A program made the position numbers and the translations under genes. Below, in pieces: positions 9,972 to 38,622 of a DNA stretch of 64,000 nt. The notes below the pieces were generated by a model. That model was given only the letters and a program-made list of their open reading frames with translations, had not been told where the DNA came from and did not search any database. Each line of letters opens with the position of its first letter. Position 1 is the first letter of the stretch. The stretch is from positions 2,329,126 through 2,393,125 of the forward strand of contig NZ_CP012410.1 of assembly GCF_001274535.1 (NCBI RefSeq), read 5' to 3'. This stretch comes from Leptotrichia sp. oral taxon 212. Its GTDB lineage: Bacteria > Fusobacteriota > Fusobacteriia > Fusobacteriales > Leptotrichiaceae.

Positions 9972-11516
9972 GTGAAAGAGAAAATCATAATTGTCGACTT
10001 CGGTTCGCAGTACAGTCAGCTTATTGCCAGAAGAATAAGGGAAATGGAAGTTTACTGTGAAATCGTGCCTATGGTTGACATTAAACAGATTAAGAATGGA
10101 GAAGATAAAATCAGAGGGATAATCTTTTCAGGAGGTCCTGCCTCAGTTTACGAAAAGGATTCACCTACTGCAGACAAAGCAGTTTTTGATTTAGGAATTC
10201 CTATACTGGGAATATGTTACGGAATGCAGCTTATCACACATCTTAATGGTGGAAAAGTTGAAAAGGCTGAATCAAGGGAATTTGGAAAGGCAATTCTGGA
10301 AGTAATCGACAGTCAGAATCCGCTTCTTTCAGATATTCCAAAAACTTCAAGCATATGGATGAGCCATAATGACCATATTACAGTACTGCCTGACGGTTTT
10401 GAGATAATTGCCAGAACAGATTCATCAATCGCGGCCATTACAAACCATAATGGCATTTATGCACTGCAATTTCACCCGGAAGTAGTTCATTCCGAATGCG
10501 GAACTGAAATAATTTCAAACTTTGTATTTAATATATGTAAATGTGAGAAAAACTGGAAAATAAAAAACTTTATACAGGAAAAAACAAAGACAATAAAGGA
10601 AACTGTAGGAGACGAGCATGTTCTTCTTGCCCTTTCAGGAGGGGTAGATTCTTCTGTGGCTGCAGTTCTGATTAACAATGCAATAGGAAAGCAGCTTACA
10701 TGCATGTTTGTCGATACAGGGCTTCTGAGAAAGGATGAAGGAAAAAAAGTCCTCGAATATTATAAGGAGCATTTTGACCTTAATATTGTATTCGTTGACG
10801 CAAAGGACAGATTCCTGAATAAGCTTAAAGGTGTGGATGAGCCTGAAGCCAAGAGAAAGATTATTGGAAATGAGTTTATTGAAGTATTCAATGAGGAAAT
10901 CAGAAAGCTCAAAGGACAGGAAGGTGCAAAATTCCTTGCACAAGGTACAATCTACCCTGATGTTATTGAATCACAGTCTATAAAAGGTCCTTCCCATACT
11001 ATAAAATCTCACCATAATGTAGGCGGACTGCCTGAAGACCTTAAATTTGAACTTCTTGAGCCTTTAAAGGAGCTGTTTAAGGATGAAGTAAGAAAAGTTG
11101 GGCATGAATTAGGACTGCCTGATACAATTATAAGCAGACATCCATTCCCGGGACCGGGGCTTGGAATAAGAGTTATCGGAGAAGTTACGCCTGACAAGGT
11201 AAAAATACTTCAGGAAGCTGATGATATCTTTATTAACGAGCTTATGGCCAAAGGACTTTATGGAAAGGTAGATCAGGCATTTGTAGCATTGCTTCCCGTG
11301 AAAACTGTAGGGGTGATGGGCGACCAGAGAACATACGAATATGTGGCTGCAATCCGTTCAGTAAATACAATCGACTTTATGACTGCCACATGGTCAAAAC
11401 TGCCTTACGAATTCCTTGAGGAAGTGTCAAACAAGATTATAAACAAAGTAAACGGAATAAACAGAATTGTGTATGATATTTCTTCTAAGCCACCGGGAAC
11501 AATTGAGTGGGAATAA
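9972..11516 (+). CDS. guaA: GMP synthase (glutamine-hydrolysing)
   Basis: This enzyme converts XMP to GMP with glutamine and ATP. The N-terminal class I amidotransferase shows the nucleophile in GICYGMQ near residue 80 and the HPE triad segment near 167. The ATP-pyrophosphatase domain carries the P-loop LSGGVDSS near 222, and the dimerisation domain ends in the canonical PPGTIEWE. Length 514 is standard. The start is GTG at 9972 with a GAGGTGA ribosome site. The last five codons (ATT GAG TGG GAA TAA) form the attachment core used by the islands downstream, so the gene end was rebuilt by integration without loss of sequence. Confidence 0.97.
11502..11516 (+). other. attL: guaA-end attachment core
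   Basis: ATTGAGTGGGAATAA codes for Ile-Glu-Trp-Glu-stop, the conserved C terminus of GuaA. The first 11 bases recur exactly at 31842-31852. A 20-base window here (ATTGAGTGGGAATAACAGAA) matches 17 of 20 at 38281-38300. The 3' end of guaA is a well-known integration hot spot. The exact crossover point cannot be read. Confidence 0.75.
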
Positions 11517-11595
11517 CAGAATCAAATATGTTACTGTTATAAAAGGCTTAAAAATACAGGAGTTGAGCGGTTTTTATGTAGTAAAATTCTCTAAA

Positions 11596-11617
11596 TGATA
11601 CTGTTTTGATACTAAAA
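11596..11617 (+). repeat. End-proximal repeat of island A, left copy
   Basis: This 22-base sequence contains two TGATACT half-units and differs at one position from the copy at 31722-31743. Both copies have the same orientation and lie 80-100 bp inside the island ends. That placement fits integrase arm-type sites. The function is inferred from position only. Confidence 0.6.
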
Positions 11618-11704
11618 GTAAGAAAAAGCAGGTCTGATTGGTGGGAGGCTTTTGTTGAAAATAGAGATAGGTAAAATGGAATTTACAAAGGAGATGGGAT
11701 TATA

Positions 11705-11803
11705 TTGTCAAAGCCAAAATATGGGTGGACAGAACTTAAGCTTGATGGAACAAGCCAATATAGCCTTAGTTATATTATGGTAAATCAGAATTTATATATG
11801 TAA
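11705..11803 (+). other. Small ORF or gene remnant in the island A left end
   Basis: A TTG-initiated frame of 32 codons follows an AAGGAG at 11688-11693 and begins SKPKYGWTELKLDG before an early stop. It could be the N-terminal stub of a larger gene. I do not recognise a family with certainty. The rest of the gap between guaA and the P-loop ATPase gene (11517-11934) holds the 22-bp repeat and no other gene that I can see. Confidence 0.3.
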
Positions 11804-11934
11804 TAGAAATTGAATTTTCCTAAATAATGAAAAATGGCTATTTGCAAACAGGAAAAATATGGACTTTTATATGGCTAAAAATAAGTTCCTTTGATACCTA
11901 CAGTCGAGAGTATAATATATTGAGGAGGTTTTAA

Positions 11935-13455
11935 ATGCAAAAGAAAAAATGTAAATTATGTTCAAATGAATTTTTTGGGGGACATCCATATTGTTCCAAG
12001 TGTTATAACATACTTAGAAAAAACCAAAATTATTATAATACTATTCAAAAAGATTGGAAATTGGAAGCGAAACAAGAAGATACAAAATATTTCTATTTTG
12101 TAAATGAAGCAGAAGAAATTATATCTGGGCAAAAGAATATAGTTATTGGTAGAAAAGGTGAAGGGAAAACAGCCATAGCACAGTATATTTATAATCAGAA
12201 TAATTATAATATATACACGGAAAAAATGACTTTTAAGAATTTCCCGTTTAATATTATTTACAAATTGTCAGACAGTAATTTTACAAAACCGAATCAATAT
12301 ATTTCTATCTGGAAGTATTTAATATACACTACTATTTGTAAAAAGATGATTGCAAATGAAAATATCAGTAGTAATATTAGAAATCAACTGTTAAAAGTAT
12401 TTCCTACTGAAGATAAGGAAAGTAAACTGTCGAAATTGATTGAGAAGTATACTGTAAAAGATTTTGGATTTCAGATTTTAAGTAGTGGTATTAATGCTAG
12501 CGTAGATAAGAAAAAGGAAGAAATAAGCTGGATTGAAATTGTTGATATTTTAGAATATACAATTTTAGAACATATTGATGATGCGAAATATTATGTTATA
12601 TTTGATGAGCTTGATGAGGATTATAAGAATTTTAGAGATGAACAAGAAAGAATTAATTATTTTGATATGATTACAGGTTTATTTAAGGCTGTACAAGATA
12701 TTAGAACCTTGTTTGATGGTAAAAAAATAAATATTTTTCCATTCATTTTTTTAAGAACAGATATTTATAACTTGATCACATACTCTGATAAAAATAAATG
12801 GTCAGATTCTATCATAAATATAGTATGGACTCCTAATAAGTTGAAGGAGTTAATAAAATATCGATTTAATGTTTTATTTGAAACCGAGGAAACCGAGTCT
12901 CTTTCGTTCAATGAATGTTGGATACGAATGTTTGGAACTCGTGAAGTAGGTTATGGATCACGTAAAATGAAAAAAATGAGTTCATTCGACTATATTCTAC
13001 GTAGTACTCAAAACAGACCTCGGGATTTTATAAAATATTTCCAAGAGTGTGCAAAACAAGCTTTGAATAGAAATAGTTTTTTGGTTGATCCTAAGATAGT
13101 GAGAGAAGTGGATAATGAATTTTCGGAATATATGAAGAATGAGATAATTGATGAGATATATGCGGTACTACCAGAATATGAGGAAATATTTTCAATTTTA
13201 TCTCTGATTAGAAAACAGACATTTAATCCATCTGAATTTGTGGAAAGGTATGATCAAAAGGTTAAAGATGGAGTAATTGTAGATAGAGGTGCAGAAAAGG
13301 TTCTAAAATTATTATTTGATTATAGTGTTATTGGAAACGATCCATCTATTAAGCATCAAATAATATTTAAGTATGAAAAGGAATCTGCAAAATTTAATTT
13401 TAAAGAGAATATTATTGTGCATAGAGGCTTATATAAGGCTTTGCAAATTTTTTAG
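11935..13455 (+). CDS. Zinc-ribbon P-loop ATPase (candidate defence protein)
   Basis: This 506-residue protein begins with a treble-CXXC zinc ribbon (CKLCSNEF...YCSKCY, residues 6-24). An NTPase domain follows, with Walker A GRKGEGKTA near residue 77 and a Walker B-like VIFDELDED near 220. The remainder is predicted alpha-helical. It resembles the Sll1717-type P-loop ATPases, cytoplasmic proteins of unproven function that are frequent in mobile elements. It stands alone at the left end of island A with its own AGGAGG ribosome site and very AT-rich sequence. A defence role is inference from location and architecture. Confidence 0.6.
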   Translation: MQKKKCKLCSNEFFGGHPYCSKCYNILRKNQNYYNTIQKDWKLEAKQEDTKYFYFVNEAEEIISGQKNIVIGRKGEGKTAIAQYIYNQNNYNIYTEKMTFKNFPFNIIYKLSDSNFTKPNQYISIWKYLIYTTICKKMIANENISSNIRNQLLKVFPTEDKESKLSKLIEKYTVKDFGFQILSSGINASVDKKKEEISWIEIVDILEYTILEHIDDAKYYVIFDELDEDYKNFRDEQERINYFDMITGLFKAVQDIRTLFDGKKINIFPFIFLRTDIYNLITYSDKNKWSDSIINIVWTPNKLKELIKYRFNVLFETEETESLSFNECWIRMFGTREVGYGSRKMKKMSSFDYILRSTQNRPRDFIKYFQECAKQALNRNSFLVDPKIVREVDNEFSEYMKNEIIDEIYAVLPEYEEIFSILSLIRKQTFNPSEFVERYDQKVKDGVIVDRGAEKVLKLLFDYSVIGNDPSIKHQIIFKYEKESAKFNFKENIIVHRGLYKALQIF

Positions 13456-13652
13456 GCTGAGTGTTAATGGATATTAAGATTATATAAAAATGTTAGCATG
13501 TACGAATAGTGTTAAAACTTTTTTTTGCTCAAGTTTATATAATAGGTAGGTAGTCCTTTGATATTAAACTTCTTTAGATGAATCAATCTTCGATACCTAT
13601 ATTAGATCAATAAATCACGATTTGTCGGGCTAATTCAGTAAATTATATAGTG

Positions 13653-13699
13653 AAAGCACATGACTTTAAGACCAAAAATCTTTCAGTTATGTGCTTTTT
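13653..13699. terminator. Terminator between ATPase and repressor genes
   Basis: Arms AAAGCACAT (13653-13661) and ATGTGCTTT (13689-13697) flank a 27-base loop and run into a T stretch on the plus strand. The complementary side gives a short T run for the minus strand. It separates two convergent genes. Apart from it, 13456-13705 shows no gene. Confidence 0.6.
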
Positions 13700-13705
13700 C
13701 TGTGC

Positions 13706-14251
13706 CTATTTTATTTCCGGTGGGACTTTGACTGACATAGAGTTATGAAAGCGTTTGAGATTACTTTCTTCAAAAGGAACATAATCTTTTTTTAGACTGT
13801 CGGGGTAGTTTGCCTTCCAATCCTCATATGCTTCTCTTGTGATCTCATTATTTTCGTATTTTTCCTTCATTCTTTGCCATTGTTCAAGCATACCTCTAAT
13901 TCTAAGAATGGCTTCACTACCAAAATAAATACCTGTGGTAGTATATTCAGGATCTTCATCATTGAGGGTAACAGGTCTTATATTGACTTCGATGCTGTCG
14001 TCCAGCTTAAACAAAAATCTCATCAAATCATGTTCCGTGTAGGGATAATCAGGTTCTTTTAAATACTCTTTATTTACATGGAGTGCAGTAGATATATTTT
14101 CCAAAACATCCTCTTTGGGAGTGCGAATATCAAGCTCATATTGTCTGATTCTAACATCATCTAAATGCGTTCTGTCTCCTAATGCTTTTTGAGTGATTCT
14201 CCGTAGTTCACGGAATTTCTTTATCAATTTACCCAAACTCAATTTTATCAC
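13706..14251 (-). CDS. XRE-family repressor of the mobile element
   Basis: This 181-residue regulator has an N-terminal Cro/CI-type helix-turn-helix (residues 5-62; LGKLIKKFRELRRITQKALG opens it) and a longer C-terminal domain typical of element repressors. It is transcribed divergently from the excisionase-like and integrase genes. The gap between them (14252-14412) holds a promoter for each direction and a palindrome. It probably keeps the integration genes silent. Confidence 0.8.
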   Translation of the reverse strand: MIKLSLGKLIKKFRELRRITQKALGDRTHLDDVRIRQYELDIRTPKEDVLENISTALHVNKEYLKEPDYPYTEHDLMRFLFKLDDSIEVNIRPVTLNDEDPEYTTTGIYFGSEAILRIRGMLEQWQRMKEKYENNEITREAYEDWKANYPDSLKKDYVPFEESNLKRFHNSMSVKVPPEIK

Positions 14252-14281
14252 CTCCTTAGGAGCAAATTTGTTTCTCTTATT

Positions 14282-14390
14282 ACTATAATCGAAAACAAGA
14301 AAAAATTCAATAGAAAAATAAAAAATAAAAAAGGACTTGACAGAAATAAAAATGATACTTATAATCTAAAACAGAAACAAATAAGTTTCT
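14282..14390. promoter_or_regulatory. Divergent promoters and operator of the integration module
   Basis: Plus strand: TTGACA (14337-14342), 17 bases, TATAAT (14360-14365), a perfect consensus promoter for the excisionase-like gene. Minus strand: TTGAAT (14310-14305), 17 bases, TATAGT (14287-14282) for the repressor. A palindrome with 7-bp arms CAGAAAC and GTTTCTG (14371-14390) lies just after the plus promoter. Its half-site GAAACAAAT recurs inverted near 14268-14276, beside the repressor start. This looks like a two-sided repressor switch. Confidence 0.7.
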
Positions 14391-14412
14391 GAAAAGAAAG
14401 GAGGAAAGTACG

Positions 14413-14598
14413 ATGGAAAAATTATTTCTTACTTCAAAAGAGGTTGCCGATTTACTAAATATTTCGCAGCAACAGGCTTATAAGATCATCCGAGATATGA
14501 ATAAGCAGCTTGCTGAACACGGCTTTCTTATCCTTAGAGGAAAAATCAATAAGAAATACTTTATGGAACAAATCTACAAAGCAAAGGAGGAAAAATAG
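14413..14598 (+). CDS. Excisionase-like small HTH protein
   Basis: This 61-residue protein consists of a MerR/excisionase-type helix-turn-helix (LTSKEVADLLNISQQQAYKI, residues 6-25) and a basic tail. Its stop codon overlaps the integrase start, so the two are coupled. Small HTH genes in this position commonly act as excisionases or integrase activators. An AAGGAGG ribosome site precedes the ATG. Confidence 0.7.
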   Translation: MEKLFLTSKEVADLLNISQQQAYKIIRDMNKQLAEHGFLILRGKINKKYFMEQIYKAKEEK

Positions 14599-15703
14599 TG
14601 CCGGCATATAAGGATGAAAAAAGCGGAAAATGGTTCGTTTCATTCTATTACAAAGATTGGGACGGAGAAAGCAAAAAAAAGCTGAAGAGAGGGTTTGAAA
14701 CAAAGAAGGATGCAATAGCTTATGAGAGGAATTTCACGGTTAAAATGTCGGGTTCTCTCAATATGTTATTTGAAGATTATTTTGAACTGTATAAATCCGA
14801 TGTGATTGGAACTGTAAGGCTTAATACTTGGATGACAAAGGAGCATATGATAAGAACGAAAATACTCCCGTTTTTCACCGGAATGAAAGTCAGCGAGATA
14901 AAGCCTGTAGTCGTTAAGAAATGACATAATGTACTTTTGAATATTGAAAATGCGGAAGGAGAAGTGTACAAGCCAACTTACCTGAAATCGATCCATGCAC
15001 AACTTAGCTGTATGTTCAACCATGCCGTTAAGTATTACGGACTAAGACAAAATCCTTGTAAGGTTACAGGCAGAATCGGAAAGCAAAAGAGTGATGAGGA
15101 AGTGGAATTCTGGACTAAAGATGAATATCTGCAATTTATTGAAGCTGTTAAAGATAAGGATATTTCATTTTATGCTTTTGAAATTCTTTATTGGACAGGG
15201 ATTCGTTTAGGAGAACTCAGAGCATTGACAAAAGGGGATTTTGACTTTGATAAAAAGACAATGCGAATCTGTAAATCAGCACAGAGAATTAACGGAGAAG
15301 AAGTTATAACAGACCCGAAAACCCCTAAAAGCAAGAGAACAATAATGCTTCCTGATTTCTTAATCAGAGAGCTTCAGGATTACTTCCTTAAAATCGAATA
15401 CTTTTCAGAGAATGAGCAGATTTTCCCTAAATGTAAAACCTATTTCAATAAGGAAATGGAAAGAGGAATAAAAAAGTCGGGAGTTAAAAAAAAATCAAGC
15501 TTCATGCACTAAGACACAGTCATATATCGCTGCTTATAGAAATGGGATTCACACCTGTAGATATTGCGGCGAGAACAGGTCATGAAAGTATTAAGGTTTT
15601 GATGGATTACAGTCATATGTTCCCGAATAAACAGTTGGATATGGCAGATAAGCTTAATAAGGAGGGAGAGTACAGTGAAAGCACCGAAATTTCCAAGCTA
15701 TGA
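14598..15703 (+). pseudogene. Tyrosine integrase, interrupted
   Basis: The joined reading is a tyrosine recombinase of about 368 residues. It has an N-terminal arm-binding domain (MPAYKDEKSGKWFVSFYY), a SAM-like core-binding domain, and a catalytic domain with TGIRLGELR, HALRHSH, TGHES and a late tyrosine in MDYSHM. Two lesions break it. One is an in-frame TGA at 14922-14924, where relatives probably have tryptophan. The other is a missing base in the A9 run at 15486-15494, which throws the HxxR/Tyr end out of frame. Start is GTG, overlapping the excisionase stop. The TGA is not a homopolymer effect, so loss of function is probably real. Confidence 0.85.
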
Positions 15704-16124
15704 TGAAGCTGTCAATCGTAAAAAGAAAAAGACTCAAAATTTGCTGAGTAAAGAAGAATGGCAAGCGTTGGAAGAAGAGAGAAAACAAAAGGAAAGGGAT
15801 AAAGGCAAGCGATTTGTAAATCACAGAAAAAAAGATGTAACCATAGCATTTAGAACAAATCGAAAAGACAGGGAGCTTATTTTCAATAAGATTGCTATGT
15901 CAGGACTGAGCAGACAGGATTATATGATAAATGCAATCCTTAATGCTCCTATAAAGGTATTTGCTACAAGAAATGTCATAGACAGTTGTAAAAGTGAGCT
16001 ACAGGAAATTTTATCAGAACTGAAACGAGTGAAGGAATATGGAGAACTGGACGCTGATTATAGACATGAACTTAGAATGATTGTTGAAATAATAGAAGCG
16101 GCGATGCAAGAAAAAAGCCTTTAG
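15675..16124 (+). CDS. Accessory mobilisation-type protein (MobC/ribbon-helix-helix-like)
   Basis: This 149-residue, highly charged protein starts at GTG 15675 after AAGGAGGGAG and overlaps the end of the integrase reading frame. After a basic N terminus it has a segment beginning DVTIAFRTNRKDRELIFNKI near residue 54, which resembles the ribbon-helix-helix DNA-binding region of mobilisation accessory proteins. A helical tail follows. A role in element DNA processing is inferred from neighbours. Confidence 0.5.
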   Translation: MKAPKFPSYDEAVNRKKKKTQNLLSKEEWQALEEERKQKERDKGKRFVNHRKKDVTIAFRTNRKDRELIFNKIAMSGLSRQDYMINAILNAPIKVFATRNVIDSCKSELQEILSELKRVKEYGELDADYRHELRMIVEIIEAAMQEKSL

Positions 16125-16230
16125 CCATAAGACCAAAGGCAAGATGAAAGTACAACTTGGTATTTCATCCCTGACAAGATCATTTTATCAGGCTGTACTT
16201 CCATCAGTAATAAAAAGAAAGGAGGTTACG

Positions 16231-17163
16231 ATGATAAACAGTGAGAAATATATTGAAAATATTCCGCAAGACTTAAAAGACCGTAGTCAATGGTTATGGT
16301 TTAAAAGGATGGTAAATGTGGATAAGCACGGAATGGAAAAAGTCATAAAGATACCTGTAAGCCCGATAACATTGAAATCGAATTTTTGGAATCAAAAAGA
16401 AAATTGGGCAGATTTTGAAACGGCAGTTAATAATATGAAAAGTAGTGGCTGTGACGGATTGTCTTTTGTACTGAGTAAAGACGATCCGTTTGTTTGTATC
16501 GACTTGGACAATGTGGATAATAAAAAACTTGAGATGTTTATAAAGGACTTTAACGATACTTATATCGAAATATCACAATCCAGAAGAGGGTTACACATTT
16601 TTGTAAAGGGGAAAATAGAAAAGAATTTTAATAACCAACTTGAGAAAGTGGAGATGTATCAAGAAAACAGATGTATTGCTATGACAGGTAATATCTACAA
16701 ATTTAATGATTTTGTTGCAAACAAAGTTCTCTTGAAACAAAAGGAGTTGGATAAATATTACAAGTTATTTTCCCCAAAAAGAAGTGTCAGAGAAGTTATT
16801 AGAAAATATCAGGAAGCGGCTGAATGTGTTCCAGACAGTGATACGGTTATAGAAACGATGTGCAGATATAACGTAAGGGCAAGAGCGTTATTTGAAGGTA
16901 CAAATACAAGCGGAGACGCCAGTAAAGATGACTTTTCATTGCTTCTTTTTCTAAACAGTTTTACTCACGGAAATGCAGAAATGATGAAAGACATATTTTT
17001 GAAATCTGCACTTAATCGCATGGGAGATCGAAGTAAAAGAAGAACGGAAAAAGGATATATGAAATATTTAGAGGATAGCATTTCAAAAGCGATACAGGGA
17101 GGAAATAAGAGATATTGGGATTATAACTATCACAGAAGTAAAGGAGGATACTCGCTTGAATAA
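16231..17163 (+). CDS. Primase-polymerase of the mobile element
   Basis: The product (310 residues) has a primase-polymerase-type N-terminal domain. The catalytic acidic pair is visible in FVCIDLDNVD near residue 90, and the nucleotide-binding histidine motif in SRRGLHIFVKG near 120. The start is set at ATG 16231 because GAAAGGAGG immediately precedes it; the open frame extends upstream without a ribosome site. It would prime replication of the excised element together with the following helicase gene, whose start it overlaps. Confidence 0.8.
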   Translation: MINSEKYIENIPQDLKDRSQWLWFKRMVNVDKHGMEKVIKIPVSPITLKSNFWNQKENWADFETAVNNMKSSGCDGLSFVLSKDDPFVCIDLDNVDNKKLEMFIKDFNDTYIEISQSRRGLHIFVKGKIEKNFNNQLEKVEMYQENRCIAMTGNIYKFNDFVANKVLLKQKELDKYYKLFSPKRSVREVIRKYQEAAECVPDSDTVIETMCRYNVRARALFEGTNTSGDASKDDFSLLLFLNSFTHGNAEMMKDIFLKSALNRMGDRSKRRTEKGYMKYLEDSISKAIQGGNKRYWDYNYHRSKGGYSLE

Positions 17164-18548
17164 TTGGCTTAAATTTGATGATTTGGAGCTAATCGATTAT
17201 GTAGATCGGGAACTTGAAATCACAGATAAGGAACAAGTCAAAAATACAACAACCAATCTCATAACTGTGTTAGTGAATCCCTGTTTTTGTAAAGAACAAG
17301 ATATTTTATCAGGATATGTTTTCTTTGACACTTGCAGCAGAACAATTCGTTTTTACGGAAAGTTAAAGGGAGAAAAAACACTGATTTAGAAATACGAAAA
17401 TGGAATGACCATATGACAAATATCCTCGGTGTTGAAATCGAAAGAGAATTTGGAATTAAGTATTCTAAAAATCGTATGGAAGATGCCGTTCTTTTTGTTG
17501 CTCATAAGAGGGCAATCAATTTACCAGCGATGTATATGGAATCGCTACCATATGACGGGCAAGAATATATTTCAAAATTACTACCCAAATATCTTGGAGT
17601 AGAGGATACAAAATTAAATTCTTGGATTATGAAACATATCTTGGTCGGTATGGTAAAAAGAGCGTTTAATCCCGGATGTAAGTTTGATGAATTGATGGTT
17701 CTTACAGGTGTGCAGGGCGTTGGAAAAACTTCATTTATTGAAAAACTGGCACTGTTTCCTGAATGGTATTGCTCATTAAACAATATAAAAGGGAAAGATG
17801 CCGTCAGTAATTTGGTAGGTAAGATTGTTGTTGAGCTTGAAGAATTTGTTGCTCTTAGAAATGCGAAAAGTGCTGATGAAGCTAAACTTTTTATTTCGGC
17901 AAGAACAAGTACGGTAAGACTTCCATATGAACGCTTTTCAACAGATGTTAAACGAAGTTGTATTTTGATTGCGACAACAAACGACGCTACATTCTTGGGC
18001 GATTTCTCAGGGGAAAGAGAAGGTACTTACCTGTAAAAGTGAACAGTGAAAAGATCCAAATTCCGCTGATGTATGATCCGGAAAAATTTCCTGTATTGGA
18101 AACTATCACAAGAAAAGAACATGCAGAAATGCTGAAAAATGATTTTGAAGGAGCTATTGCGGAAGCGGTATATCTTTATAAAAATAAGCTGCATGATTTC
18201 TATTTGCCGAAGGAATTAAGGGGCGATTTGGACTATGTCATTCAAACACACAAGAGCGAAAACAGACATGTGCAAAATTTCTTAGACTTTATGGAATGGA
18301 AGATAACGAAGTCTGATACTCCTAATTTATTATGTTCCGCAGAATTTACAAGCAAGTATCCTGAAACAAATGAAAAAGTATTTTCAGAGCTGATGGCAAA
18401 TGAGATGGCTGATGAATGGATTTTAGAGCCTAATGTAAAAAGTAAGAAAGTAAGGATTGACGGAACCGTTAGAGTAAGCAAAAAGTTCTATAAGAGAAAT
18501 GCAACAGCAGATTTTGTGGAAGTAAAAGATATCGAAATTCCGTTTTAA
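17156..18548 (+). pseudogene. VapE-like replicative helicase, frameshifted twice
   Basis: The joined reading (about 465 residues) is a virulence-associated-E/D5-type helicase. Walker A is GVQGVGKTS, Walker B is IVVELEEF, and a TTNDATFLGDFSG sensor-like segment follows. Frame is lost at the A6 run at 17373-17378 and again near 18010-18016 (G4 then A3). Each fits loss of one base and nothing else is missing. Start is TTG 17156 with AAGGAGG upstream, overlapping the primase end. If the lesions are sequencing errors the gene is intact. Confidence 0.8.
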
Positions 18549-18550
18549 GA

Positions 18551-18629
18551 GTTTTAAAAAAGTCCACTACCGCTACTTTGCTACCAGGCATAAAAGGTAG
18601 CGGGGTAGTGGTAGCGAAAACTTTTAAAC
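18551..18629. terminator. Long hairpin after the helicase gene
   Basis: CCACTACCGCTAC (18564-18576) pairs with GTAGCGGGGTAGTGG (18597-18611), leaving a two-base bulge. Flanking GTTTTAAAA-type and CTTTTAAAC-type arms extend the stem. It sits directly after the helicase stop codon and is likely a terminator or structural replication signal. Confidence 0.5.
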
Positions 18630-18764
18630 TTTTGTAGAAAAGAAAAAATGCAGAAATTCTTAGCCAAATTGCTTGTGGCGATTCATATGCATTTTCTGTG
18701 ATAGTTATAAAAGGATAAGTATATTTTTAGTATAAGCAGCATATAGAGTGAGATAGCAAGCATA

Positions 18765-18823
18765 TACTTTTTGACCACAGTCCAAAAAGTAGGCTTGTAA
18801 GCTGTACACTGCTAATTCAGCTT
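18765..18823. other. Candidate origin of transfer (oriT)
   Basis: Two inverted repeats lie just upstream of mobC. Perfect 9-bp arms TACTTTTTG (18765-18773) and CAAAAAGTA (18783-18791) flank a 9-base loop, followed by 6-bp arms AAGCTG (18799-18804) and CAGCTT (18818-18823). Mobilisable elements usually carry the relaxase nick site next to such repeats upstream of mobC. The nick site itself cannot be identified by eye. Confidence 0.5.
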
Positions 18824-28542: not shown

Positions 28543-28560
28543 AAAATAAAATGTTTGGAG

Positions 28561-31437: not shown

Positions 31438-31448
31438 AGGAGATGAAA

Positions 31449-31658
31449 ATGAGAAAGTTTTCATATAAAAATTTGTTTAAAAAACTAATAGATTTAGATA
31501 TGACAAACAATGAACTTATGGAAAAGGCAAATGTGAGTAAAAGTACATTCTACAAAATAAAGAATGGGCAAAATGTAACTACAGATGTTTTGCTTAGGAT
31601 TTGTAACACATTAGACTGTGATATTTCAGAGATTGTAGAATGTGAAAAAGTTATATGA
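31449..31658 (+). CDS. Small XRE-type helix-turn-helix regulator
   Basis: This protein of about 69 residues is made up almost entirely of a Cro/CI-type helix-turn-helix (DMTNNELMEKANVSKSTFYK, residues 17-36). ATG 31449 is chosen because AAAGGAG is correctly spaced; the ATG at 31443 abuts it. The gene lies 11 bases after the helicase-nuclease and probably regulates it. Such small partners are common beside toxic or defence nucleases. Confidence 0.7.
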   Translation: MRKFSYKNLFKKLIDLDMTNNELMEKANVSKSTFYKIKNGQNVTTDVLLRICNTLDCDISEIVECEKVI

Positions 31659-31721
31659 TATACAGAGTATATGTATTATAAATAAATTATTAGTTTTGCT
31701 GTAAAATAACAGTATCACTGT

Positions 31722-31743
31722 TGATACTATTTTGATACTAAAA
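31722..31743 (+). repeat. End-proximal repeat of island A, right copy
   Basis: This 22-base sequence has two TGATACT units and 21 of 22 positions identical to 11596-11617, in the same orientation. It lies about 100 bp inside the middle guaA-end core, mirroring the left copy. Confidence 0.6.
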
Positions 31744-31841
31744 AACTCAAAAACTATAAAAAATAGGTATAAAACACTCAAGAATAGAAACTAAATAGAT
31801 GCTGTTTTATGAAAATAAGAAACAAATATAATGTGGTAATT

Positions 31842-31856
31842 ATTGAGTGGGAGTAG
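31842..31856 (+). other. Middle attachment core (displaced guaA end)
   Basis: ATTGAGTGGGAGTAG encodes Ile-Glu-Trp-Glu-stop, the GuaA C terminus, with no guaA gene in front of it. Thirteen of 15 bases match 11502-11516, including the first 11 exactly. It marks the boundary between islands A and B. Confidence 0.75.
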
Positions 31857-31904
31857 TTAAAGACAAGCTATAAAGTTTTATACATACACATTTTGTAAGC
31901 GTTG

Positions 31905-31925
31905 TGCTTGCAAAATGCTTGCAAA
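31905..31925 (+). repeat. End-proximal repeat of island B, left copy
   Basis: Two TGCTTGCAAA units in tandem, 21 bases in all, match 20 of 21 positions with 38163-38183. The copy lies about 50 bp inside the middle core. It differs in sequence from the island A repeat, suggesting recognition by a different integrase. Confidence 0.6.
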
Positions 31926-31979
31926 GTTTAGAAATACATCACCTGAAGGATAATTCTTTGAGTGATTTTTTATATTTTA

Positions 31980-32013
31980 AAATGCTACGGGTCGTTCCCA
32001 TAGCATTTCTTTT
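31980..32013 (+). terminator. Stem-loop terminator in the A/B junction region
   Basis: Arms AAATGCTACGGG (31980-31991) and CCCATAGCATTT (31997-32008) pair at 11 of 12 positions with a five-base loop and a T-rich tail. It lies in the gene-free stretch after the middle attachment core. Confidence 0.6.
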
Positions 32014-32107
32014 TATAGTAGATTGTTTTCTTTCAAGTATTCAATTCTTTTTTTAGAATCTCATCTCTTGACAGTTCTTCAGATTTTTTCTGTGTTAGGT
32101 GTTTCAT
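32013..32107 (-). pseudogene. Relic of an IS3-family OrfA
   Basis: Minus-strand translation reads MKHLTQKKSEELSRDEIL and, after a one-base shift in an A run, KKRIEYLKENNLL. This resembles the C-terminal coiled-coil end of IS150/IS3-type OrfA proteins. The N-terminal HTH and all of OrfB are missing. Only about 30 residues remain, so the family call is tentative. Confidence 0.4.
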
Positions 32108-32170
32108 TTTACATAAAATTGAATATCAATTAAAATTATTGATTAGTTTTTAGTACATAGAAAAGTTTTA

Positions 32171-32210
32171 TTTGTCTTAAGTCATATTCTTTTTATTGAC
32201 ATAAGACAAA
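32171..32210. promoter_or_regulatory. Palindrome upstream of the restriction-modification genes
   Basis: Arms TTTGTCTTAAGTCA (32171-32184) and TGACATAAGACAAA (32197-32210) pair at 13 of 14 positions with a 12-base loop. It lies about 145 bases upstream of the -10 of the methyltransferase gene. It may be an operator, possibly for the helix-turn-helix at the methyltransferase N terminus, or a relic insertion-sequence end. Confidence 0.4.
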
Positions 32211-32351
32211 AAACAATTGAACAGAGCCATGGTATAAATAATGATGTGAAGTTATATCAATGAATGGAGTGTACTATAAATGATACTCTTTATTTTTTGA
32301 TGCAATTAGCATCCATTTTTTGCTAAAAATATAGAAAAAATGAGTGAAATA

Positions 32352-32360
32352 TGCTATAAT
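32352..32360 (+). promoter_or_regulatory. Extended -10 promoter of the restriction-modification operon
   Basis: TGCTATAAT (32352-32360) is a perfect extended -10 with no recognisable -35. An AAGGAGG ribosome site (32387-32393) and ATG at 32401 follow. Promoters lacking a -35 are often activator-dependent or weak. Confidence 0.55.
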
Positions 32361-32400
32361 GTCTACTAAATAAATTAAAATATGGCAAGGAGGAATAAAG

Positions 32401-34569
32401 ATGGCAGGTCTCAATGTCGCTGATGTAATAAAAGAATTAGATATTTCTAAGTCATATTTATATAAATTAATAGATAAAGAAAATATTTTAATTCCGAAAA
32501 GTGACACAGGAAGATACTTTTGGAATGAAAATACAGTTGAAATTATAAAAAGATTTTTGCATATAGATGCTTTACAGCAAAAGGATGATACAGATTCTTT
32601 AATATCCAAATTAGAATTAAAACAATCTTTTATAAATAACAGAAGATATTTAGGAAATAAATATTCCCTTTCTAACTTTATAAGAAAAACAGTTGATAAA
32701 AATTGTAAAGGTATAAATATTGTTATTGACATATTTAGTGGAACCGGTGCAGTTGCGAATACTTTTAAGGATAAAATGCTTATCACAAATGATTTGCTGT
32801 ATAGTAATTATATTTCCAATTATGCATGGTTTGGATATGAAAGATATTCAAGTAAAAAGATAATTAAGCTTATATACGACTATAATCAAATTAAAACAAA
32901 AGAAAATAATTATATGCGAGAAAATTTCGCAAATACATTCTTTTCTGCTGATGATTGTAGCAAGATAGGATATATAAGAGAAGATATAGAAGCAAAGTAT
33001 AAAAACAAAGAAATAAATTTTAAGGAATATGCAATATTAATCACATCACTTCTATATGCAATGGATAAGATTGCAAACACGGTTGGACACTATGATGCGT
33101 ATAGAAAAAATATAGACTTTGAAAAAACTTTAGTATTGAATGTTTTATTACCTGAAGAAACGATAAATTCTAATAATATTTGTTATAACTTAGATGCAAA
33201 TGAACTTATTAAAAGTATTAAGGGGGATTTGTTGTATTTGGATCCTCCATATAATTCAAGACAGTATTGCGATGCATATCATTTACTTGAAAATGTTGCA
33301 AGATGGGAAAAACCTAAAGTTTATGGGGTTGCAAGAAAGATGGATAGGACTTCGCTTAAAAGTGACTACTGTCTGATTACAGCTACAAAAGCATTTGAGG
33401 AACTTATTGAAAAGGCTGATACAAAGTATATCTTGCTTTCATATAACAATATGTCTAATAAGGGGAATGATAGGTCAAATGCTAAAATACCGGATGAAGA
33501 TATTATGAGAATTCTTAGCAAAAAAGGAAAAGTTACTATATTTGAATTAGACTACAAGAGTTTTTCGACTGGAAAATCAGATATAAAAGACAACAAAGAA
33601 AGACTATTTTTATGCGAAGTATTTAGCGAAGAAAAAAAGAAAATGAATATATCTTGTCCATTTAATTATACAGGCGGAAAATTTAAGTTGCTAAAACAGT
33701 TGCAGCCTTTATTTGATGAAAAGGAAGTATTTTTAGATTTGTTTGCCGGAGGAGGAAATGTTGGAATAAATTCATCTTCTTCAAAAGTTATCTTTAATGA
33801 TTCAAATGAAAAACTAATAGATTTAATTAAATTTATCAAAGAAACTGATACTGACGTTTTATTAAAACAAATAGACAATATTATTGATGAATATGATTTA
33901 TCCAATACATCGTTATATGGATATTCTTATTATGATTGTAATAGTAGTAGAGGCTTAGCCCAATATAATAAAGAAAGATTTTTCAAGTTAAGAGAGGATT
34001 TTAACGCTAAAGTCCTTGCTGGAAAAACAGATTACTTGATGTTATATGTATTGATGATTTTCTCTTTTAACAATCAAATTCGTTTTAATCGAAAAGAGTT
34101 GTTTAATCTTCCTGTAGGGAAGAGGGATTTTAACTCTAAAATGAGAAGTAAGCTTGTGTTATTTTCTGAAGAATTAAAAAGCAAAGATGTTCAGTTTATG
34201 AAAAAGGATTTTAGAGAAATTTCGTTAGATGATTTTTCTCAGGAGACTTTTATTTATTGTGATCCACCTTATTTGATTACAAATGCAACATATAATGAAA
34301 ATGGAATGTGGACTGAAATAGAAGAAAAAGCTTTACTTAAGTTTTTGGATGAAGCCAATGAAAAAGGTTTTAGTTTTGCTTTGTCTAATGTTTTGGAAAG
34401 TAAAAATAAAAAAAATGATATTTTATATAATTGGATTGAAAATAAGGGATATTACTGCAATCATCTAAATAAAAGTTATTCAAATAGCAATTATCACAGA
34501 AAAAATAAAAATAGTATATCTGAAGAAGTTCTGATTACTAATTATCCTTTGAATTGGAGGAATAAGTAA
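32401..34569 (+). CDS. Two-domain N6-adenine DNA methyltransferase with N-terminal HTH
   Basis: The 722-residue protein has three parts. Residues 1-55 form a MerR/excisionase-like helix-turn-helix (LNVADVIKELDISKSYLYKL). The first D12-type methyltransferase has FSGTGAVAN near 115 and catalytic DPPYNS near 282. The second has FAGGGNVGIN near 450 and DPPYLI near 622. Two domains in one chain fit an asymmetric target whose strands are methylated separately, as for FokI- and AlwI-type systems. The next gene is an AlwI-like endonuclease starting directly after the stop. The target is probably GGATC-like, by family analogy only. The HTH may autoregulate the operon. Confidence 0.85.
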   Translation: MAGLNVADVIKELDISKSYLYKLIDKENILIPKSDTGRYFWNENTVEIIKRFLHIDALQQKDDTDSLISKLELKQSFINNRRYLGNKYSLSNFIRKTVDKNCKGINIVIDIFSGTGAVANTFKDKMLITNDLLYSNYISNYAWFGYERYSSKKIIKLIYDYNQIKTKENNYMRENFANTFFSADDCSKIGYIREDIEAKYKNKEINFKEYAILITSLLYAMDKIANTVGHYDAYRKNIDFEKTLVLNVLLPEETINSNNICYNLDANELIKSIKGDLLYLDPPYNSRQYCDAYHLLENVARWEKPKVYGVARKMDRTSLKSDYCLITATKAFEELIEKADTKYILLSYNNMSNKGNDRSNAKIPDEDIMRILSKKGKVTIFELDYKSFSTGKSDIKDNKERLFLCEVFSEEKKKMNISCPFNYTGGKFKLLKQLQPLFDEKEVFLDLFAGGGNVGINSSSSKVIFNDSNEKLIDLIKFIKETDTDVLLKQIDNIIDEYDLSNTSLYGYSYYDCNSSRGLAQYNKERFFKLREDFNAKVLAGKTDYLMLYVLMIFSFNNQIRFNRKELFNLPVGKRDFNSKMRSKLVLFSEELKSKDVQFMKKDFREISLDDFSQETFIYCDPPYLITNATYNENGMWTEIEEKALLKFLDEANEKGFSFALSNVLESKNKKNDILYNWIENKGYYCNHLNKSYSNSNYHRKNKNSISEEVLITNYPLNWRNK

Positions 34570-36552
34570 ATGGCGAATAAAAGTATTCCATACCAAAGTT
34601 TTTGTTGGGTCATAGGAACTACAAGTTTTAGAACGGCAAAACTAAATTTAAAAATCGAGGCACAATTGTTACTTCTTGATGAGTTTTATAATGAGGTCAT
34701 AAAGGAATCAAGTTGGAACTGGAACAATGAATTGCAAGAAAAATATTATGATTTTATGAAAGATAGAGCTTTCCTAACAGGAGAAGCAAAAAGAAAAGAC
34801 AAAGATGCTAGAGAAAAAACATCAGGGTTGGTTGATATTGGTTTAATTACAGAAGATAGATTGATTACGGATGCAGGAAGAGAACTCCTTAAAATAACAA
34901 GTAGCGGGGATTTTGAAACCAATAATGTGTTTAATATTAATAGAGATAGCTTTATCTATCTAAAACAGCTTCTTAAAACAAGTATAGACGTAAGTGGTAG
35001 TATTGTTAGACCGTTTATTGCGGTTATAAAGTGCCTGACGGAACTTGAGTTTTTAAGTTATGACGAGTTTACTTATTTTGTTCCGCTAATTAGAGATGAC
35101 GAAAGTGCAAAACAAATTATATCGGATATTAAATTATATCGAGAAGGTAAAATTTTGCTGGAAGAAATAATTTATAAGAGGCTTATGCAAATGGATAACT
35201 ATAAACTTGCACAAGAAGAATTTATAACCTCTTATGTTGATGAAAATTTAATATGTTTAGTGGGAATGAATCGTAAAAGCAGAAGCTATGACAAGCCGTA
35301 CTATAAATTATATGAGAATTTAAAGAAGGTATTTCTTGATGGCGAAAACATTTATGAATCACTATTAAATTCTGCAAAGAATATAAATCAAAAACCTGGA
35401 ACATTGTGGAGAAGTTTACTATTTAAAACAACCAATATTGGTGTTGTAAGAAAAAATGGGAAGTCTTCAATTCACAAACAATGCCCATTTATAAACTGTA
35501 AAAATGAAACAGAACTAAAAGAAGTGTTTTTTAAATATTTACATATTTTTAAAGCCATGGCGACTTTATCTGATTATTTTGATTTAAATAGAAGATATTT
35601 TAATATTACAGATACTCTAATTTTTGAAGATCGTATGATTAAGTTGGATATGATTCCAAAATATTATTTTAAAGAAATTATTGATGTTCTGTATACAAAA
35701 ACTTTTAGTAGAGATAATAATCTCAGAGCTGATGCCTCGCTTGAAACTATATCAGAAGCATTCAAGTTAGATATTAGCAAAGTATATGTAGCTTTAAGTA
35801 AACATTTAGGAATTACAATTAAGAGTCCGGAACAAGCTGCAACTTATGTAAATGATGAACGATACAGAAGATTTAACACTTTGATTGATAAGAAATTTAA
35901 CGATTCTGTGCTTATAGAGTTACTAAATTGTTTTGAGAAACGTGATGATAAAAGGATTGAAGAACTTGTTACAGATGAGGCTGCAATACCAACTATCTTT
36001 GAATATATTTTGGGAATTATATGGTATAAAGTAAGTGAAAGACAAGGAAATATTTTGGGCTTCATGAAGTTATCATTAGAAGCTAATTTATTGCCTAAAA
36101 CACATGCAACTGGAGGTTATGCAGACATTATATATGAATATGAAGCATGCACTTCTTATCCTAAACATTCGCTATTACTTGAAGCAACTCTTGCAGACGG
36201 AAACAATCAAAGAAGAATGGAAATGGAGCCTGTTTCAAGACATTTAGGAGATTATAGGATTAGATTTAATAATCCGTTTGATTACAGTTTGTTTGTAAGT
36301 ACTTATTTGGATAAGAATGTCGTTTCTGATTTCAGATATAGAAAAATAATTCCCTATACAAGAGAGGAAGAGACTATTACAGGAATGAAGATTATTTCAA
36401 TGGATACAGATTCTCTTAAGAAAATAATTGAAAATAAGGTTAAGTACAAGTATCTGTATGAAGTATTTGATAAATACCATGAAATGCCATTAGAGACTGT
36501 AGATTGGCATGATGGGATGATAAAAGAGGCCACAGGAGAGTATAAAGTTTAA
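34570..36552 (+). CDS. AlwI-family type II restriction endonuclease
   Basis: The 660-residue protein opens with YQSFCWVIGTTSFRTAKLN, the hallmark N terminus of AlwI-family restriction enzymes. AlwI itself recognises GGATC and cuts outside it. A PD-(D/E)xK-like acidic site may lie in the ILLEATLADGNNQ-type region near residue 540 (LLLEATLADG). Its ATG directly follows the methyltransferase TAA, so the pair is an operon with methylase first, the safe order. Exact specificity is not readable. Confidence 0.85.
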   Translation: MANKSIPYQSFCWVIGTTSFRTAKLNLKIEAQLLLLDEFYNEVIKESSWNWNNELQEKYYDFMKDRAFLTGEAKRKDKDAREKTSGLVDIGLITEDRLITDAGRELLKITSSGDFETNNVFNINRDSFIYLKQLLKTSIDVSGSIVRPFIAVIKCLTELEFLSYDEFTYFVPLIRDDESAKQIISDIKLYREGKILLEEIIYKRLMQMDNYKLAQEEFITSYVDENLICLVGMNRKSRSYDKPYYKLYENLKKVFLDGENIYESLLNSAKNINQKPGTLWRSLLFKTTNIGVVRKNGKSSIHKQCPFINCKNETELKEVFFKYLHIFKAMATLSDYFDLNRRYFNITDTLIFEDRMIKLDMIPKYYFKEIIDVLYTKTFSRDNNLRADASLETISEAFKLDISKVYVALSKHLGITIKSPEQAATYVNDERYRRFNTLIDKKFNDSVLIELLNCFEKRDDKRIEELVTDEAAIPTIFEYILGIIWYKVSERQGNILGFMKLSLEANLLPKTHATGGYADIIYEYEACTSYPKHSLLLEATLADGNNQRRMEMEPVSRHLGDYRIRFNNPFDYSLFVSTYLDKNVVSDFRYRKIIPYTREEETITGMKIISMDTDSLKKIIENKVKYKYLYEVFDKYHEMPLETVDWHDGMIKEATGEYKV

Positions 36553-36577
36553 TTATGATGTGGAGACAGGAGATAAT

Positions 36578-38119
36578 ATGAAAATAAAATCGATGAAAGT
36601 TAAAAACTTTAGAGGTTACTCGGACGAAACAATAGTAAATTTTGATGATTTAACTGTTATAGTAGGAAAAAACGATGTTGGTAAATCAACAATTTTAGAG
36701 GCATTGGATATCTTTTTCAATGATGGTAAAGGCGTTGTGAAAATTGATAAAACAGATGTAAATATAGCTAAATCAAAAAATGGTGAACATGAAACAGTAA
36801 TAAGCATATGCTTTTGCGATCTACCAGACAAGGTGATAATAGATTCATCTGTTGAAACATCGCTTGCAGACGAATATCTTTTGAATAAAAATAAAGAATT
36901 AGAGATAGTAAAAAAATTTCAAAATGGTGGAGCAGCAAAAGTATATATAAAAGCGAGCCATCCAACAAATAAAAGTTGTGAAGATTTATTATTAAAGAAG
37001 AACTCAGATTTAAAAAAATTAATTAAAGAAGAAAATATAGAATGTAGTGACTTGAGTGTCAACTCAATAATGAGAAAAGGAATATGGGAAAAATATTCAA
37101 ATAATCTACAATTGGATGAAATTGAACTTGATGTCACAAAAGAAGATGCAAAAAAAATTTGGGAAAAAATATCTTTATATTTACCAGTATATTCACTTTT
37201 CCAATCAGATAGAAAAAATAGTGACTCAGATAACGAAATACAAGATCCATTAAAGGAAGCAGTAAAACAAATTATTAGTGAAGAAAGTTTACAAAATAGT
37301 CTTGTGGAGATTGCAGATATAGTTAGAAAAAAAATAGAAGAAGTATCTAATAGAACCTTAGAAAAAATAAGAGAAATGGATCCAGAAATTGCAAGCACTT
37401 TAAATCCAGTTATTCCTGCAGCAAAGAACTTAAAGTGGCAAGATGTTTTCAAGAACGTTTCTATATCTGGAGATGAGAACATTCCAATAAATAAAAGAGG
37501 AAGTGGAGTAAGACGTTTGATATTGTTGAATTTTTTTAGAGCAGAGGCTGAAAGAAGAGCAGAAAATAGCGAAAATGCAAATGTTATATATGCAATAGAG
37601 GAGCCAGAAACATCTCAACACACAAATAATCAGTATAAGTTAATTGAATCTTTAAAAGAATTAGCAAGATTGCCAAAAACTCAGATATTGTTAACGACAC
37701 ATAGTCCTAATATTGTAAAAAGACTGGATTTTTCAAATTTAAGATTGCTTAAAGACGGAGAACAAAAAAAAGAAGTACAAAATGTTGCACCGGGTCAATT
37801 ACATTATCCATCGCTAAACGAAGTAAATTACATGGCTTTTGGTGAGATAACAGAAGAGTATCATAATGAATTATATGGTTTTATTGAGTTGCAAGGTTGG
37901 CTTAACGATTATAAATCTAGTAAACAGGTGATCGATTATAAAAAGTTGAAACAAGATGGGTCGATAGTTACTCAAAAGCTAACTTTAACAGAATATATAA
38001 GGCATCAAATACATCATCCAGAAAATGTAAATAACAGAAGATTTAATCTTTCAGAGTTAAAGGATTCGATAGAAATGATGAGAAACTTTATTTCGATGAA
38101 TGATAAAAGAGCAGAATAG
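36578..38119 (+). CDS. SMC/RecF-like ATPase with HEPN-like C terminus
   Basis: This 513-residue protein has the ABC-type ATPase N terminus MKIKSMKVKNFRGYSDETI, Walker A GKNDVGKST near residue 30 and Walker B VIYAIEEPETSQH near 340. An LLTTHSPN switch follows near 370. OLD-family nucleases would carry a Toprim domain here. Instead the C terminus reads EYIRHQIHHPEN near 470, which matches the R-X4-H pattern of HEPN ribonucleases. ATG 36578 is chosen for its AGGAGA site; a GTG lies 18 bases upstream. It follows the restriction gene closely, suggesting a guard or abortive-infection module tied to the R-M system. That link is inference. Confidence 0.7.
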   Translation: MKIKSMKVKNFRGYSDETIVNFDDLTVIVGKNDVGKSTILEALDIFFNDGKGVVKIDKTDVNIAKSKNGEHETVISICFCDLPDKVIIDSSVETSLADEYLLNKNKELEIVKKFQNGGAAKVYIKASHPTNKSCEDLLLKKNSDLKKLIKEENIECSDLSVNSIMRKGIWEKYSNNLQLDEIELDVTKEDAKKIWEKISLYLPVYSLFQSDRKNSDSDNEIQDPLKEAVKQIISEESLQNSLVEIADIVRKKIEEVSNRTLEKIREMDPEIASTLNPVIPAAKNLKWQDVFKNVSISGDENIPINKRGSGVRRLILLNFFRAEAERRAENSENANVIYAIEEPETSQHTNNQYKLIESLKELARLPKTQILLTTHSPNIVKRLDFSNLRLLKDGEQKKEVQNVAPGQLHYPSLNEVNYMAFGEITEEYHNELYGFIELQGWLNDYKSSKQVIDYKKLKQDGSIVTQKLTLTEYIRHQIHHPENVNNRRFNLSELKDSIEMMRNFISMNDKRAE

Positions 38120-38162
38120 CTTTTCACCAGAATATAACGTATTTGTTTTTTAATCTGTTTCA

Positions 38163-38183
38163 TGCTTGCAATATGCTTGCAAA
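38163..38183 (+). repeat. End-proximal repeat of island B, right copy
   Basis: Two TGCTTGCAA-type units in tandem, 20 of 21 bases identical to 31905-31925, same orientation. It lies about 100 bp inside the right attachment core. Confidence 0.6.
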
Positions 38184-38205
38184 AAATCAGATAAACAGAA
38201 ATAAA

Positions 38206-38622
38206 CTAGATAATAAGGCTAAATCTGATAATAAAAACCTTGATTTTATGCCATTTATACAAAATAATATTAATGGACATATCGAGTGAGAATAATAGAA
38301 AACAGTACAATGTAGCCCATTTTCTAAAAGCAATACCTCTTGGAGATTTTACTCTATATCCAACAGAGATAATCATATCAAGATTGTAGTAATCTACCTT
38401 ATATGTTTTTCCATCAGAAGCAGTTGTCGCAAATTTTGCGACAACTGAAGAATCAAGTTCTTCTTTAAGTGCATTGTTTATGTGTTTACCTATTGTTTTT
38501 ACATCCCTGTCAAATAAAACCACCAACTGATTTCTATTTAACCACACAGTTTCCCTGTCAGGAGCTACTTCCACCGGAAGTTCCAGTTCACCATCTTTAT
38601 AAAGAATAACTTCATTATTCAT
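38206..38622 (-). pseudogene. Truncated RhuM-family protein
   Basis: The first about 103 residues match the RhuM (virulence RhuM/Fic-associated) family, including VWLNRNQLVVLF and SPRGIAFRKWAT. The remaining 35 residues are unrelated hydrophobic sequence read out of island B. The normal protein is about 300 residues, so the C-terminal two-thirds are gone. Loss occurs close to the right attachment core at 38281, implicating integration or excision events. Confidence 0.75.
38281..38300 (+). other. Right attachment core (diverged guaA end)
   Basis: ATCGAGTGAGAATAATAGAA matches the guaA end and its flank (11502-11521) at 17 of 20 positions. It lies within 20 bp of the point where the RhuM-like frame loses homology, so it marks a recombination junction. 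It is the most diverged core and therefore probably the oldest. Confidence 0.55.

What the first reader, a model, noticed from the sequence alone, without database searches (positions are those of the whole stretch)
11502..38300. Three copies of the guaA 3' end delimit two tandem genomic islands
The core coding I-E-W-E-stop ends guaA, recurs out of context at 31842 (11 exact bases, and again coding I-E-W-E-stop), and recurs in diverged form at 38281 (17 of 20). All genes between are mobile-element or defence genes, and ordinary chromosome resumes at pyrD. This is tandem accretion at the guaA hot spot.
Basis: partly seen in the sequence, partly recalled or inferred. Interest (0 to 1): 0.75.

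Follow-up and report, generated by a model that had tools for sequence, protein, structure and literature searches.

The report
Stacked mobile islands behind guaA
Two pieces of foreign DNA have slotted one behind the other into the end of the guaA gene of a Leptotrichia-family bacterium; both have lost working mobility genes, and the second is a stripped-down defence cassette whose complete parent element is found in unrelated gut bacteria.

Summary
The three 11-bp cores alone are weak evidence (4 hits vs 0.85 expected, one a chance hit). What settles it is homologous islands elsewhere. A single island in a relative (G006) has the same left and right ends as island 1. A single island directly on guaA in another Leptotrichiaceae genome (G009) matches island 2's right end, and the match stops at the core.

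Island 1 (11516-31844) is a decayed integrative mobilizable element: integrase, primase-helicase and relaxase genes are broken. Its cargo is largely transporters. Island 2 (31856-38283) has no integrase. It maps in three collinear blocks onto an intact element in Suipraeoptans, with ~6.36 kb (repressor to relaxase) deleted: a cis-mobilizable element (CIME). Each island has its own paired arm repeats (TGATACT, TGCTTGCAA), so one core served two integrase types. A truncated rhuM after core 3 is a further relic.

Beyond the window, island 2's right end (137 bp, mostly 86-93% identical) recurs in Fusobacteriota, Bacillota and a Moraxella assembly next to varying defence genes; 11 of 13 readable cases lack an integrase. 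IME/CIME accretion is known in streptococci; the defence-slot family is the fresher part.

The parts
9972..11516 (+). guaA (GMP synthase), target gene; its last codons are the attachment core
   Evidence: ORF; 94% identical guaA in G015
11505..11515 (+). core 1 GAGTGGGAATA (guaA / island 1 junction)
11516..11633 (+). left end of island 1 with paired arm-type repeat TGATACTGTTTTGATACTAA at 11596
   Evidence: 72-74% identical to the left ends in G006 and G019; repeat scan
11516..31844 (+). island 1: decayed integrative mobilizable element
   Evidence: ends matched to G006; gene content
11935..13455 (+). 506-aa protein (Zn-ribbon/P-loop by eye), cargo at the left end; no Pfam hit, weak PADLOC PDC-M28C
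13706..14251 (-). HTH repressor; 94% identical in G006
14413..14598 (+). small HTH_17 protein, excisionase-like
14598..15700 (+). Tn916-type tyrosine integrase, broken (one in-frame stop, one frameshift); intact 367-aa homologue about 94% identical in G006
15675..20714 (+). mobilization/replication module: NikA-like, primase, VapE-like helicase (frameshifted), MobC, MobA relaxase (interrupted)
20826..27752 (+). transport cargo: TetR, two ABC exporters, double EcfA ATPase, EcfT, Trep_Strep S-component
28019..31658 (+). sigma-70 region 4 protein, 995-aa DEAD/ResIII helicase, small HTH protein
31711..31844 (+). right end of island 1, arm repeat TGATACTATTTTGATACTAA at 31722, ending GTAATTATT before the core
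   Evidence: 79% over 148 bp to G006's island right end; also G565
31845..31855 (+). core 2 GAGTGGGAGTA (island 1 / island 2 junction)
   Evidence: same junction type in G565, 81% over 264 bp
31856..38283 (+). island 2: integrase-less defence island (CIME-like)
31856..31971 (+). left end of island 2 with paired arm repeat TGCTTGCAAAATGCTTGCAA at 31905
   Evidence: 81-86% to L085, L086 and G565
32010..32098 (-). relic: 3' end of the parent element's repressor gene
   Evidence: 88% to L085 3362-3451
32210..32262 (+). relic: 3' tail of the parent element's relaxase gene; the deletion scar lies between 32098 and 32210
   Evidence: part of the 32210-32417 match, 87% to L085 9807-10017
32401..34569 (+). 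722-aa double D12-class adenine methyltransferase
   Evidence: 85-93% identical in G009, Moraxella, Megasphaera, Suipraeoptans
34570..36552 (+). AlwI-family type II restriction endonuclease
   Evidence: PF09491
36560..38119 (+). OLD/AriA-like AAA_15 ATPase in the exchangeable cargo slot
   Evidence: different genes in this place in other islands
38158..38294 (+). conserved right end of island 2: arm repeat TGCTTGCAATATGCTTGCAA at 38163, ACATATC before the core
   Evidence: mostly 86-93% identical in 13 other genomes, 75% in the two most diverged
38284..38294 (+). core 3 GAGTGAGAATA
   Evidence: homology with G009 ends here
38310..38670 (-). relic: 5' part of rhuM and its upstream, cut 16 bp from core 3
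   Evidence: PF13310; 83% DNA identity to G565, where a full-length rhuM follows the homologous core

Best explanation
The guaA 3' end is the attachment site for Tn916-type tyrosine integrases that recombine an 11-bp core (GAGTGGGARTA) overlapping the last codons and stop of guaA. An integrative mobilizable element (IME) carrying an AlwI-type restriction-modification system plus a swappable defence gene entered here, or was already shortened when it arrived; it lost its integrase-mobilization block by deletion and is now a CIME (island 2) that keeps both ends. A second IME with a related but distinct integrase (island 1) sits between guaA and island 2, giving guaA-core-IME-core-CIME-core. Island 1 has since decayed too, so neither island should excise unaided. 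Shown by sequence: the cores, the two types of ends, homologous single islands in other genomes, the broken genes, the deletion scar and the intact parent-type element. Inferred: recombination at the core, the order of arrival, and the pairing of each arm repeat with its integrase.
For: Island 1: G006 has guaA-core-same left end (73%)-HTH-intact integrase-mob genes-same right end (79% over 148 bp) ending GTAATTATT-GAGTGGGAATA. Island 2: G009 has guaA-core-MTase-AlwI-right end; right-end homology (89%, 133 bp) covers 38163-38295, i.e. stops at the core. Parent type: L085 (Suipraeoptans intestinalis) has left arm-HTH-integrase-NikA-primase-MobC-relaxase-MTase-AlwI-HamAB-right arm; window blocks 31845-31955, 32010-32098 and 32210-32417 match it collinearly at 81-88%, a deletion of about 6.36 kb. 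Distinct arms: the only exact-spacing pairs in the window are TGATACT pairs at 11596 and 31722 and TGCTTGCAA pairs at 31905 and 38163, all with an 11-bp period. Integrase broken, no close intact copy in the genome. G565 shows guaA-core-small island with island-1-type right end-core-intact island-2-type IME-core-rhuM. guaA as IME/ICE target and IME-CIME accretion are described in PMC4844618, PMC5357655 and PMC5704250.
Against: No strictly empty guaA-pyrD junction was found in relatives. Core 3 has a mismatch and no longer codes the guaA tail. The order of arrival cannot be read from the sequence. Excision or integration was not tested.
Confidence: 0.9

Rival explanations
1. One composite element: islands 1 and 2 arrived together as a ready-made tandem (perhaps with rhuM), rather than by two separate integrations in this lineage.
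For: G565, from a different phylum, has the same order: island-1-type right end, core, island-2-type left end (81% over 264 bp across the junction), right core, then rhuM 83% identical in DNA.
Against: Because the ends are conserved, separate integrations give the same junction sequence. The island-1 position in G565 holds only a small 286-aa gene that found no match in the set of island proteins it was compared with, and each island type also occurs alone (G006, G009).
Confidence: 0.25
2. Island 2 is not a degraded leftover but a member of a non-autonomous family that is moved in trans (or by homologous recombination between guaA arrays) and exchanges its defence gene.
For: Of 13 readable genomes with this right end, 11 lack an integrase in the island, yet the end is mostly 86-93% identical across Fusobacteriota, Aerococcaceae-group and Negativicutes genomes; the gene block before it differs.
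Against: MTase-AlwI islands have different, nested deletion scars, as expected of progressive or repeated decay. No movement without an integrase was observed.
Confidence: 0.3
3. The repeated cores are chance 11-mers and the region is one ordinary foreign block.
For: The core alone is not far beyond chance, and it occurs three more times elsewhere in the genome.
Against: Conserved ends beside the cores in independent islands, and homology that stops at the core.
Confidence: 0.02

Closest known systems
IME-CIME tandem accretion (streptococcal elements; Pavlovic 2004 and Bellanger 2011 as cited in PMC5704250)
   Same: Site-specific elements stacked at one gene 3' end; one has lost integration and transfer genes but kept both attachment ends; the other sits next to the target gene.
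   Different: Here in Leptotrichiaceae (Fusobacteriota) at guaA; both elements are now defective; island 2 carries restriction-modification and another defence-type gene.
Tn5801-like guaA islands (PMC4844618)
   Same: Integration at the guaA 3' end with 11-bp direct repeats as putative core; Tn916-family integrase.
   Different: No conjugation module and no tet(M) here; mobilizable rather than conjugative.
Streptococcal IMEs with Tyr_3 integrases at guaA/rplL (PMC5357655)
   Same: Tyrosine-integrase IMEs at guaA with mobilization genes; tandem accretion with decayed elements reported for this class of elements.
   Different: Membership in Tyr_3 was not tested by tree; the accretions listed there were at rpsI, rpmG and rplL and one secondary site.
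IME of Suipraeoptans intestinalis 68-1-5 (L085), not described in the papers I found
   Same: Same ends and same MTase-AlwI pair; parent type of island 2.
   Different: Keeps an intact integrase and mobilization genes, carries HamAB instead of the AAA_15 ATPase, and sits at a non-guaA site with core GAGTTTGAATA.

Membership tests
IME (island 1) | own integrase | tested here: met
   Tn916-type integrase present but broken by one stop and one frameshift; so a decayed IME
IME (island 1) | relaxase but no full conjugation apparatus | tested here: met
   MobA/MobC/NikA found, no type IV secretion genes among the proteins scanned
IME (island 1) | flanked by attachment sites at a specific target | tested here: met
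   cores 1 and 2, ends shared with G006
IME (island 1) | excision, and mobilization by a helper | not testable with these tools
   needs experiment; the broken genes predict none
CIME (island 2) | attL- and attR-type ends retained | tested here: met
   arms and cores at both ends, conserved in other genomes
CIME (island 2) | integration and transfer genes lost | tested here: met
   only MTase, REase and ATPase genes; relics of repressor and relaxase with about 6.36 kb deleted relative to L085
CIME (island 2) | mobilized in cis by a neighbouring element | not testable with these tools
   island 1's integrase is broken and its ends have other arm repeats
Tn916/Tn5801-family ICE | guaA 3' end target with 11-bp core repeats | tested here: met
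   PMC4844618
Tn916/Tn5801-family ICE | conjugation module | tested here: not met
   no such genes among the proteins scanned between 11516 and 38283
PARIS defence system (36560-38119) | AriA ATPase together with AriB | tested here: not met
   AriA-like ATPase only; no AriB gene in island 2

The most novel reading that the evidence does not exclude
Island 2 belongs to a cross-phylum family of non-autonomous defence cassettes at guaA that share a roughly 137-bp right end, are moved in trans by a few integrase-bearing relatives, and exchange the defence genes directly upstream of that end.
Probability: 0.3. Interest if true: 0.75.

Novelty: new member of a known kind. Interest (0 to 1): 0.45.

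Why it matters
It extends IME-CIME accretion, known mainly from streptococci, to Fusobacteriota, and gives a set of intermediates for one element type: intact parent type (Suipraeoptans, G565), partly deleted forms (Moraxella assembly, Aerococcaceae MAG) and cargo-only forms (window, G009, Megasphaera). It shows that islands stacked at one core can be told apart by their arm repeats, and that a defence-gene slot beside a conserved element end is filled differently in different bacteria. Whether the integrase-free forms still move is directly testable.

Tried and rejected
Chance repeats: rejected by end homology. Island 1 as a conjugative Tn5801-like ICE: no conjugation genes. Trans-acting integrase in the same genome: the only other Phage_int_SAM_3 integrase found (G000:1498823) has a 332-aa ORF, is 29% identical to the L085 integrase, appears to start without the N-terminal arm domain (by eye), and has no matching arm pair or core nearby, so it is an unlikely helper. 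Plasmid search with the right end, and IMG/VR search with a 27-base exact pattern from it: no match. Plasmid search with island 2 DNA: only distant R-M matches. Phage search with the MTase: below 60% identity only. Lachnospiraceae sample: 1 of 397 genomes with the right end, Suipraeoptans itself (only 2 candidates per genome were scored). Independence of the deletion scars is not claimed because the deletions are nested.
Full report
What was checked. The three cores are present at 11505, 31845 and 38284 as described. The core motif alone is weak evidence: 4 hits at one mismatch or fewer against 0.85 expected, one of them inside a repressor gene. The case was therefore tested through the ends of the islands in other genomes.

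Context. The window lies in a single-contig genome of 2,444,904 bp. Family membership: G009, placed in the same family, is the record titled Leptotrichiaceae bacterium Gw_Inlet_bin_177. In the closest relative by guaA, G015 (94% identical), guaA and pyrD lie about 12 kb apart with an R-M-like cluster including a rhuM gene between them; in several others guaA and pyrD are not neighbours. No empty guaA-pyrD junction was found.

Island 1. G006 carries a single homologous island at guaA: same left end (73% over 113-118 bp), HTH repressor, an intact 367-aa integrase (about 94% identical over the matched parts), NikA, primase, VapE, MobC, relaxase, and a right end 79% identical over 148 bp that closes with GTAATTATTGAGTGGGAATA. 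In the window the integrase has a stop and a frameshift, the VapE gene is frameshifted and the relaxase is interrupted. The cargo is TetR, two ABC exporters, an ECF transporter, a large helicase and small regulators, so the statement that every gene is mobile or defence does not hold.

Island 2. It holds a 722-aa double adenine methyltransferase, an AlwI-family endonuclease and an OLD/AriA-like ATPase, and no integrase. In G009 a homologous island sits directly on guaA; its right end matches 38163-38295 at 89% and the match stops at the core. The protein search found the MTase at 91-93% identity in Suipraeoptans, Megasphaera, an Aerococcaceae MAG, an uncultured Eubacteriales MAG and a Moraxella catarrhalis contig. 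Suipraeoptans (L085) has the complete element with integrase and mobilization genes. The window's island 2 aligns with it in three collinear blocks (left end; 3' end of the repressor gene; relaxase tail plus MTase start), so about 6.36 kb from the repressor through the relaxase is missing. Other islands have different scars in L085 coordinates: L083 5083/9294, L086 3520/9438, window 3451/9807, G009 3419/9888. These are nested, so repeated deletion and progressive erosion cannot be told apart.

Two specificities at one core. Island 1 ends carry TGATACT pairs (11596, 31722), island 2 ends TGCTTGCAA pairs (31905, 38163), all with an 11-bp period. The same pairs flank elements with an intact integrase (TGATACT type in G006; TGCTTGCAA type in L085 and G565); the G006 and L085 integrases are 49% identical. 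That each repeat is the arm site of its integrase is inferred. Megasphaera shows a third kind, TGGTACT, at the left end of an island-2-type cassette and again after the next core, so hybrids exist.

A related array in another phylum. G565 (same family as the Aerococcaceae MAG) reads guaA, core, a small island with an island-1-type right end, core, an island-2-type IME (integrase 93% to L085, relaxase split by a 605-aa ORF), core, then rhuM. The window's truncated rhuM (38310-38670) is 83% identical in DNA to that gene and is cut 16 bp from core 3. It is a further relic; whether it was once a core-flanked island is open. The bases just after core 3 (ATAGAAAACA) equal those after guaA in G021, which would fit native flank there.

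The right end as a marker. A 137-bp query from the right end found it in 4 of 398 Lactobacillales (all four within the 77-genome family of the Aerococcaceae MAG), 5 of 381 genomes of the class of Megasphaera (Megasphaera included), 1 of 397 in the family of Suipraeoptans, plus the Eubacteriales and Moraxella genomes. These are lower bounds, since in the large samples only two candidates per genome were scored. With G009 and the window this gives 14 genomes. G1217 is cut by its contig end; of the other 13 only Suipraeoptans and G565 have an intact integrase inside the island. Eleven of the 14 are seen next to guaA. Genes just before the right end include HamAB (Hachiman), an AAA_13 protein, OLD-like ATPase, a DUF6414 protein, type IIG R-M, SIR2-HerA, Dam-like MTase plus ATPase, and cytosine MTase sets. 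In G1189 an integrase-bearing element lies between guaA and an integrase-free island, the same layout as in the window. Integrase absence was judged from ORF lists and similarity to the known integrases; a very different integrase could be missed.

Interpretation. The layout fits the published scheme for IME-CIME accretion: integration, decay to a CIME, then a new IME integrating beside the target gene (PMC5704250); guaA is a known target (PMC4844618, PMC4701971, PMC5357655). Because both islands are now defective, spontaneous excision circles are not expected. The most novel reading left open is that the integrase-free forms are still moved in trans, which would explain their conserved ends in distant hosts.

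Noticed in passing
window 43000-61000: Minus-strand block of mostly 20-30% GC including a glycosyltransferase (44544-45692); possibly a surface polysaccharide cluster.
   Followed up: no
L121/L122 (G053, uncultured Eubacteriales): Three right ends of the island-2 type in a row downstream of guaA with different R-M cargo: a longer array than in the window.
   Followed up: partly
L118 (G565): Relaxase gene of the IME is split by a 605-aa ORF that looks like a group II intron protein (by eye only).
   Followed up: no
L084 9479-16750 (Megasphaera hutchinsoni): Island with a left end of TGGTACT-arm type and a right end of TGCTTGCAA-arm type, followed by another TGGTACT left end: a hybrid formed within an array.
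   Followed up: partly
L085 2640-2790 (Suipraeoptans): Just left of the IME lies another 11-bp-period pair (TGATAACAAATTGATAACA), suggesting a further stacked element there.
   Followed up: no
L083 (Moraxella catarrhalis contig): Island-2 MTase, AlwI and ATPase at 93-95% identity in a gammaproteobacterial assembly, with integrase and relaxase remnants; guaA not seen on the part read, and contamination was not excluded.
   Followed up: partly
window 11935-13455: 506-aa protein without Pfam hit in the left cargo position of island 1; G006 has other genes in that position.
   Followed up: no
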